DNA from: a virus
DNA length: 38,664 bases
Reading direction: 5' to 3' (one strand)
IMG/VR virus record: IMGVR_UViG_3300005530_000528
Span: 1-38,664 of that record
The notes beneath the pieces are model-generated. The model worked only from the letters and a program-made list of their open reading frames with translations, was not told where the DNA came from and did no database searches. The translations under genes and the position numbers were made by a program. Position 1 is the first letter of the stretch. Each line of letters opens with the position of its first letter. This document shows, piece after piece, positions 37,340 through 38,664 of the stretch.

Positions 37340-37361
37340 CTAAACTACGAGCACAATAACC

Positions 37362-37378
37362 AGACCTCTTTAAGGTCT
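37362..37378 (-). other. Hairpin at the 3' end of the IsrB-like gene
   Basis: AGACCT-TAAAG-AGGTCT, a 6-bp perfect stem with a 5-base loop, overlaps the stop codon of the IsrB-like gene. Subterminal hairpins of this size mark the right ends of IS200/IS605-type elements. Here it could be the element end or an mRNA 3' structure. There is no T-tract, so it is not a terminator. Confidence 0.5.
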
Positions 37379-38368
37379 ATGGAGGAATGCTCGCCTCCTA
37401 TTATAAGTTAGAAATCTACAGTCTTCTACTTTTGCATTCTGACATAACCGCGATCCAGTTATTACCGAATGCAAACTTATTTTACCTTTTGAGTTTCCGC
37501 CAACATAAACGACATTATAGTTAGGATGCCTAATCAAACTTCCACGCTTTAGCCCAAGACTTCTTGTGCCGCCATAATGCTTACGCATACCATTGCTTGG
37601 TTGCAAGCGATGCAATTGTCTCCTGTGTAGCATAATAGTAGAAATGCACAGAACTTGCCTGTTAGATATTTGATCTCCGCCTACTATATGGTTTGCTAAG
37701 ACCCAGCTATCCATACAATGAGATTCAAACGAGTTGCTTAATTTGTTGTGAGACTTTTTAAGCCCTAGCCGATCTCTCAATTGTTTCGTTTCCCAGCCTT
37801 GTTTAGTCGTTAGATCAGGTATTTGTGAATAGAACCAACTTTTTCCTATCTCTAGCGGCGAAAAAGAGCGGTCCCATCGTCTTTTTCCAGTAGACTTAGC
37901 CTTAATATCTTCCACAATTACTTGTGTTATAGGAAACAGCTTCTTCAACCAATCAAGAATTGTTAATTTCCATTGCCATCTAGCTTTGGTACTAGGCGGA
38001 ATGCGATTTCTCTTGAGAGAACTTCTATTCCATCTGACCTTACGATAAGGTGTTTTACGGAACCTCCGCCCTCTTCTCATTTCCCTTTTGGTTTTAATGG
38101 CATCCTTGACATGCTGGATTGCATCGACTTGAACATTCAAGTAAGTATGAGATTTGCTTTTAACAGTAAAACCTTCTTTTTTACTGCCTGGATCAATACC
38201 GACAGCTATCTCTTGCTTACTTTTACCTGATGGCTGATTGAGCCTAGCACAAAAGACATGACCTTTCCAAAAACCGGTAGCTCTACCTGATGCGATCCAT
38301 TTCCGTACTCGACTAGGTTTAGCCGGCATAAGTGCTTCTTGATTTTGATCAACGATCGGCACGAACAT
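37370..38368 (-). CDS. isrB: IsrB-like RuvC protein (IscB family, RNA-guided nickase candidate)
   Basis: A 332-residue protein. PLMP-type N-terminus (EALMPAKPSR, 11-20), RuvC-I Asp59 in AVGIDPGSKKEG, an arginine-rich bridge helix (about 93-120: KREMRRGRRFRKTPYRKVRW), RuvC-II Glu153 (ITQVIVEDIKA) and RuvC-III His217/Asp220 (ESHCMDSWVLANH). The C-terminal RRQLHRLQP and GGTRSLGLKRGS match the family. Only 63 residues separate RuvC-II and III and there is no HNH domain, so it is the IsrB type, expected to nick DNA with an omega RNA. No TnpA-type transposase is nearby. Confidence 0.85.
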   Translation of the reverse strand: MFVPIVDQNQEALMPAKPSRVRKWIASGRATGFWKGHVFCARLNQPSGKSKQEIAVGIDPGSKKEGFTVKSKSHTYLNVQVDAIQHVKDAIKTKREMRRGRRFRKTPYRKVRWNRSSLKRNRIPPSTKARWQWKLTILDWLKKLFPITQVIVEDIKAKSTGKRRWDRSFSPLEIGKSWFYSQIPDLTTKQGWETKQLRDRLGLKKSHNKLSNSFESHCMDSWVLANHIVGGDQISNRQVLCISTIMLHRRQLHRLQPSNGMRKHYGGTRSLGLKRGSLIRHPNYNVVYVGGNSKGKISLHSVITGSRLCQNAKVEDCRFLTYNRRRAFLHRP

Positions 38369-38664
38369 AGTTAGCTTTCTTCGGTTTGTCGCGGTAAGCC
38401 GAGCCGAAACTCGTATTTATTTCCCTTCGCTCCTGACTGACATAGAGGGTAAAGACTTAGGAGGCATCCATACCATATTTTACTCTACCATAAGTAGTCA
38501 GTTCAGTTGACTTCATGCGACCAAGACATTCTTGATCTTGTCCAAGCTAGTATTCCGTTTAACTTTGCCTTTTTGAGTTGGCAGCCCTACTCGGTCAAAG
38601 CCCCATCGTCTCTAACAATAGGGTAGTTTACGGCTACATCTTTAGGATTCGATAGGTTTCCCCG
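38369..38664 (-). ncRNA. Omega-RNA-like leader upstream of IsrB-like gene
   Basis: The minus strand 5' of the gene carries a cluster of strongly conserved-looking motifs of IscB/IsrB omega RNAs (HEARO class): GGGGCTTTGACCGAGTAGGG then CTGCCAACTC at 38580-38604, with GAGT and ACTC pairing; CAAGA/TCTTG; AGTCA-ACTGAAC-TGACT; CTAC-TTAT-GTAG; a GGAGCGAAGGG segment; and a terminal ACGAG-TTTCGG-CTCG hairpin just before the start codon. The guide would lie at the 5' end, near 38640-38664 or beyond the window; GTAG-CCGTAAA-CTAC at 38623-38637 would be the first scaffold hairpin. Confidence 0.7.

What the first reader, a model, noticed from the sequence alone, without database searches (positions are those of the whole stretch)
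37340..38664. IsrB-type RNA-guided nickase locus in a phage
A RuvC-only RRXRR protein with PLMP motif, bridge helix and all RuvC acids, an omega-RNA-like leader directly upstream, and an IS200/IS605-like hairpin at the 3' end. No transposase is nearby. Phage-borne IsrB systems might help element spread, exclude rivals, or regulate host or phage genes.
Basis: partly seen in the sequence, partly recalled or inferred. Interest (0 to 1): 0.8.

Follow-up and report, generated by a model that had tools for sequence, protein, structure and literature searches.

The report
Phage IsrB element at a start codon
A phage carries an intact-looking mobile element made of an RNA-guided DNA nickase (IsrB) and its guide RNA, wedged exactly in front of a gene's start codon, and relatives with and without the element show that this family tends to land at start codons.

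Summary
The window ends with a complete IsrB element (37340-38631, minus strand). It holds a 332-aa IsrB with all RuvC residues, an omega RNA leader, a terminal hairpin and no Y1 transposase. Rfam's HEARO model does not hit the leader. A model built from 104 relatives' leaders, without the window, hits it at E=4e-31, and the fold is supported by strong covariation among 22 phage leaders.

Beyond the finding, the element abuts an ATGA that is the start codon of a 565-aa phage gene. The same holds in about two thirds of ~90 viral and bacterial relatives, against 7-9% of comparable sites. Empty alleles in Microcystis (Ma-LMM01-type) phages and two cyanobacterial lineages show guide + ATGA as an uninterrupted leader and start codon. 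The residue that reads TAM base 4 in DtIsrB (Q326) covaries with A or G at that site, so the start codon doubles as the TAM.

Best explanation: a selfish, TnpA-dependent OMEGA element whose nickase targets empty alleles, favouring retention or homing in co-infecting phages. This is a new member of a known kind. The start-codon rule is the part I could not find described.

The parts
37340..38631 (-). complete IsrB element (omega RNA + isrB + right-end hairpin), 1292 bp
   Evidence: left edge = start of the conserved omega RNA core; right edge = position directly before ATGA, as in relatives with proven empty sites
38632..38651 (-). native 20-nt guide, CGAATCCTAAAGATGTAGCC, taken from flanking phage DNA
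   Evidence: lies directly 5' of the omega RNA core; present once in the window; in relatives this stretch equals the empty site's leader
38369..38631 (-). omega RNA scaffold
   Evidence: nhmmer E=4e-31 with a model built without the window; alignment A2 and covariation; relatives' leaders match Rfam HEARO weakly but full length
37370..38368 (-). isrB, 332-aa RNA-guided RuvC nickase; D59/E153/H217/D220; R307 and Q310 predicted TAM readers
37347..37394 (-). right-end subterminal hairpin, overlapping the 3' end of isrB
   Evidence: z=-2.7; z=-3.8
37336..37339 (-). ATGA: predicted TAM and start codon of the downstream gene
   Evidence: direct reading; TAM reader Q310
35642..37339 (-). downstream phage gene (565 aa, signal-peptide-like N terminus, CIHCH motif) whose start codon abuts the element
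   Evidence: no Pfam family above cut-off

Best explanation
It is a non-autonomous IS200/IS605-type OMEGA element of the IsrB class living in a phage. The left-end transcript is an omega RNA whose 5' guide is whatever DNA the element landed next to, so every insertion reprograms IsrB to its own empty allele (20-nt leader + RTGR). [quoted passage not shown] The occupied allele is spared because the insertion separates guide and TAM. Nicking of empty alleles in co-infecting or replicating phage DNA would favour repair from, or replication of, the occupied copy (retention or homing). Movement to new sites needs a Y1 TnpA in trans. The favoured landing site is between leader and start codon, so the start codon serves as the TAM and the guide often contains the gene's Shine-Dalgarno sequence. 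SHOWN: intact protein, omega RNA, boundaries and empty/occupied/deleted alleles in relatives, start-codon bias, TAM-residue covariation. INFERRED: nicking by this protein, biased inheritance, TnpA in trans. The window's own empty site was not found.
For: Protein family and fold; catalytic residues invariant in 116 relatives; omega RNA model hit and covariation. Phage empty sites: the 1274-bp element of L052 is absent from L265/L267/L268, where the joined flanks run on for 1199-1200 nt at 95-96%, the site being Ma-LMM01 gp099's start; Ma-LMM01, MaMV-DC, MaMV-DL01 and L266 carry a 134-bp deletion derivative there. Bacterial empty sites for L147 (leuA start) and L162 with 0-1 guide mismatches in the nearest relatives, and ATGA. 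Start-codon bias 21/29 viral and 42/64 bacterial against 8.6% and 6.8%, and 19/29 and 33/58 with an ORF-blind boundary rule. SD in left flank 13/25 viral and 16/48 bacterial against 2/25 and 3/48 in a control stretch. Q310/R307 = DtIsrB Q326/R323 (PMC9581776). Gene-drive activity of the analogous TnpB is published (PMC11870625).
Against: No empty allele or second carrier of the window's own site was found. No TnpA in the record, and only 5 of 26 other IsrB-bearing viral records carry one over the cut-off. A nickase is a weaker drive than a double-strand cutter. The window's core starts GTAAAC rather than GTCAAC, and 6 of 32 consensus pairs are not standard in it, so some decay is possible. Homing was not observed.
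Confidence: 0.72

Rival explanations
1. Domesticated phage weapon or regulator: the phage keeps IsrB to nick rival phages or host DNA or to repress genes, as phage TldR proteins do.
For: Intact RuvC and omega RNA under broad conservation; phage-encoded RNA-guided regulators exist (TldR, PMC13418256); in Ma-LMM01 the guide next to the scaffold is not the flank-derived one.
Against: In two bacterial sites (0 mismatches in the nearest relatives) and in phage L052 (one mismatch) the guide is the flank of the insertion, as a selfish element predicts. No convincing non-self target: the guide scan gave one unrelated repeat family plus one stray hit, 16-17 of 20 matched. Element-minus and deleted alleles persist in sister phages.
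Confidence: 0.12
2. Inert passenger: a decaying copy that once moved and no longer acts.
For: Atypical core GTAAAC, 6 of 32 consensus pairs not standard, no TnpA; decayed forms exist in relatives (134-bp remnant; IsrB replaced by an HNH ORF in MaMV-DL01).
Against: Full-length ORF, all catalytic, bridge-helix and TAM-reading residues kept, leader scores 100.7 bits, terminal hairpin intact.
Confidence: 0.14
3. The leader is not an omega RNA but an ordinary 5' region, and the protein works without a guide.
For: No Rfam match at E<=10; single-sequence folding only z=-1.8.
Against: E=4e-31 with a model built without the window; covariation score 0.64 against 0.23 in shuffles; relatives' leaders match HEARO full length at E 1e-3 to 1e-7.
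Confidence: 0.02

Closest known systems
IsrB of Desulfovirgula thermocuniculi (DtIsrB, PDB 8DMB; PMC9581776)
   Same: Size, PLMP-RuvC-BH-TI layout, no HNH, upstream omega RNA with 5' guide, R323/Q326 TAM readers conserved as R307/Q310; published TAM NTGA fits the ATGA edge
   Different: About 22% identity in the structural alignment; window lies in a phage, DtIsrB in a bacterium; omega RNA subgroup not assigned; activity untested
HEARO RNA (RF02033) / IscB elements (PMC9755519)
   Same: Mobile element with structured guide RNA upstream of a RuvC protein, rarely next to TnpA; relatives' leaders are weak full-length HEARO matches
   Different: No HNH domain; window leader itself is below detection by the HEARO model
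IsrB gp171 of Microcystis phage Ma-LMM01 and its genus (annotated RRXRR or hypothetical)
   Same: Phage-borne IsrB whose element ends at the ATGA start of the next gene
   Different: About 31% identity; carries extra tandem guide-adaptor units upstream; decayed or replaced in some isolates
TnpB of IS200/IS605 as gene drive in plasmids (PMC11870625)
   Same: Guide records the insertion site, empty alleles are targeted
   Different: TnpB makes double-strand breaks and has the guide at the right end; IsrB nicks and has it at the left end
TldR, phage-encoded RNA-guided regulators (PMC13418256)
   Same: Phage-borne OMEGA derivative
   Different: TldR regulates host flagellin expression; here the RuvC residues are intact and the guide is flank-derived

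Membership tests
IsrB (OMEGA nickase) | ~350-aa RuvC-only protein with PLMP, bridge helix, no HNH | tested here: met
   332 aa, RRXRR Pfam, DtIsrB by sequence and fold
IsrB (OMEGA nickase) | intact RuvC catalytic residues | tested here: met
   D59, E153, H217, D220 invariant in 116 sequences
IsrB (OMEGA nickase) | ~300-nt omega RNA upstream with 5' guide | tested here: met
   family model E=4e-31, 263-nt scaffold plus flank guide, covariation
IsrB (OMEGA nickase) | NTGA/RTGR TAM at the element's far edge, read by the TI domain | tested here: met
   ATGA at 37336-37339; Q310 and R307 match DtIsrB readers; residue covaries with TAM base 4 across loci, p=3e-4
IsrB (OMEGA nickase) | RNA-guided nicking activity | not testable with these tools
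   needs purified protein
IS200/IS605-type element | subterminal hairpin ends and clean insertion at a fixed tetranucleotide, no target duplication | tested here: met
   hairpins at both ends; empty sites of relatives show exact insertion before RTGR; not shown for the window's own site
IS200/IS605-type element | encodes Y1 transposase TnpA (autonomous members) | tested here: not met
   no PF01797 hit in the record; hence filed as non-autonomous
HEARO (RF02033) | score above Rfam gathering threshold | tested here: not met
   none in the window; relatives weak but full length

The most novel reading that the evidence does not exclude
IsrB elements of this clade are start-codon specialists. They insert between the ribosome-binding leader and the start codon, so the start codon is the TAM and the guide is a translation-initiation region. 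In phages this would make them self-reprogramming RNA-guided nicking homing elements that also rewire translation of the gene they precede. In the Ma-LMM01 phages a run of guide-adaptor units with variable spacers may be a first step towards a multi-guide, CRISPR-like array.
Probability: 0.3. Interest if true: 0.68.

Novelty: new member of a known kind. Interest (0 to 1): 0.45.

Why it matters
Phage IsrB elements are common (62 loci found in IMG/VR here) but sit in reference phages as 'hypothetical' or 'RRXRR' proteins. Natural empty, occupied and deleted alleles at one site in a culturable phage genus (Ma-LMM01 and MaMV isolates on Microcystis) make it directly testable whether a nickase-type OMEGA protein drives its own spread. 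The start-codon rule predicts native targets and TAMs for any IsrB of this clade from sequence alone, and suggests how such elements survive in gene-dense phage genomes.

Tried and rejected
Rfam scan of the leader: negative, superseded by the family model and by the HEARO control on relatives. Guide + TAM scan of IMG/VR: 65 hits, 64 from one unrelated repeat family and one stray, 16-17 of 20 matched, treated as chance. Empty site for the window through its downstream gene: one 39% relative (L169) without an IsrB hit, too distant. L071 had been counted as a start-codon site; its IsrB-free relative L194 shows the real edge lies further upstream, so it was dropped. SD supplied by the element's right end: not clearly enriched. 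Targets of the Ma-LMM01 scaffold-proximal guide in 388 cyanobacterial genomes: only 2-mismatch hits in 6 genomes, inconclusive. First regular expression for right ends: too noisy, replaced.

Full report
OBSERVATION. The last 1.3 kb of the window (a 38,664-bp virus record) codes on the minus strand for a 332-aa RRXRR protein (37370-38368). It matches Pfam RRXRR, NCBIfam guided_IscB over its N-terminal half below the cut-off, and DtIsrB over residues 3-288; the family profile extends the match to the C terminus. The AlphaFold model (mean pLDDT 75) has DtIsrB as its best PDB fold match, TM 0.74, ahead of IscB structures. D59, E153, H217, D220 and the bridge-helix arginines R98, R101 and R102 are invariant in 116 relatives. 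The rest of the record is phage: Pol III alpha, DnaB, primase, UvsX-like recombinase, ribonucleotide reductase, tRNAs.

OMEGA RNA. Rfam finds nothing in the leader. A nucleotide profile from 104 relatives' leaders, without the window, hits 38632-38384(-) at E=4e-31 and nothing else in the record. In an alignment of 22 phage leaders, 25 of 32 predicted pairs show double-sided changes; covariation is 0.64 against 0.23 in shuffles and 0.08-0.14 when slid. The window itself keeps 26 of 32 pairs as standard pairs. Leaders of several relatives match HEARO full length below the gathering score, linking the two families. The guide, read as the 20 nt before the core, is CGAATCCTAAAGATGTAGCC.

EDGES AND EMPTY SITES. 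The right edge in relatives is a terminal hairpin and a short tail, then RTGR. Joining the flanks of bacterial L147 and L162 gives 160-nt sequences found uninterrupted in related genomes, with 0-1 guide mismatches in the nearest and ATGA at the junction. In phages, L052 and its near twins L261-L264 carry a 1274-bp element, while L265, L267 and L268 have the uninterrupted site over 1199-1200 nt at 95-96%. The host sequence belongs to the Ma-LMM01 genus, where isolates Ma-LMM01, MaMV-DC and MaMV-DL01 have a 134-bp remnant at the same place, joined at a 5-bp TTGCC microhomology. The occupied guide differs from the empty allele at one base. At this site the upstream gene's TAA stop becomes TAG through the element's first G.

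START CODONS. The right-edge tetranucleotide was ATGA, ATGG or GTGA in 115 of the 116 curated loci. Among distinct sites with both ends, an ORF of at least 60 codons with no in-frame ATG before the upstream stop begins there in 21/29 viral and 42/64 bacterial cases, against 8.6% and 6.8% of RTGR sites in the flanks. Edges were picked by eye, which could favour ORF starts, so I repeated the test with a rule blind to ORFs: 19/29 and 33/58. SD-like motifs lie at -18 to -4 in the left flank of start sites in 13/25 viral and 16/48 bacterial cases, against 2/25 and 3/48 in the adjacent control stretch. Survivorship (insertions elsewhere are harmful) and target choice could both cause the bias. Relatedness among loci was only partly removed. 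In the window the guide has no strong SD.

TAM READER. In DtIsrB, R323 and Q326 read TAM bases 3 and 4, and Q326R accepts G (PMC9581776). The profile alignment puts these at window R307 and Q310 (the 150-residue tag offset also places R100 and R104 correctly). Across 116 loci this column has the strongest association with the fourth base of the edge: R or K in 6 of 8 ATGG loci, Q in 93 of 108 loci ending in A (p=3e-4, not corrected for relatedness, but the column was named beforehand by the structure). This supports the edge being the TAM and predicts NTGA for the window.

MOBILITY. There is no Y1 transposase in the window; 5 of 26 other IsrB-bearing viral records have one over the cut-off, and all 7 tested bacterial genomes do. 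So transposition is probably in trans.

VERDICT. A new phage member of a known kind. The element probably persists as a selfish, self-reprogramming nickase. Homing is inference by analogy with TnpB gene drive (PMC11870625). I found no paper in the library that reports the start-codon rule, but the key older papers are not held. From memory, HEARO elements were reported to integrate at ATGA or GTGA, so the tetranucleotide is probably known and only the link to start codons and SD-bearing guides may be new.

Noticed in passing
L272 (Ma-LMM01), L275 (MaMV-DC), L277 (MaMV-DH01), upstream of the IsrB gene: Tandem CRISPR-like units GTCACTAACCCCGCCCTAA(A)GGCG with 6-17 nt variable spacers before the omega RNA; 3-4 extra units, differing between isolates, none in MaMV-DL01. 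No comparable array in 128 other IsrB loci scanned.
   Followed up: partly
L276 (MaMV-DL01) about 6613-7457: The IsrB element shell is kept but most of isrB and the omega RNA is replaced by an HNH homing-endonuclease-like ORF (200L).
   Followed up: partly
L266 1367-1500; L271 1076-1207: 134-bp internally deleted IsrB element (left 49 bp + right 104 bp, TTGCC microhomology) at the gp099 start codon in isolates and a metagenome contig.
   Followed up: yes
window 34616-37339 (-): Three genes in a row with signal-peptide-like starts; two carry one c-type haem motif each (CIHCH, CAACH), possibly phage-encoded secreted cytochromes.
   Followed up: no
window 1665-5876 (-): DNA polymerase III alpha split into two ORFs (640 and 548 aa) with a DnaQ-like exonuclease ORF (221 aa) between them.
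   Followed up: no
L035 2427-2648: A separate Rfam HEARO RNA about 1 kb downstream of the IsrB gene in the same phage contig.
   Followed up: no
L196-L260 (except L238): 64 short viral contigs share GGCCAGG...CACCCTAAAGATGTAGCCTTGAA, a repeat family that matches part of the window guide with a TTGA TAM, probably by chance.
   Followed up: partly
L044 / L015 right end: The element's right end is missing; the guide-side AAAGGAGCCGACCG resembles the sequence before the start codon (GGAGGCCGACCG), perhaps a recombination scar.
   Followed up: no
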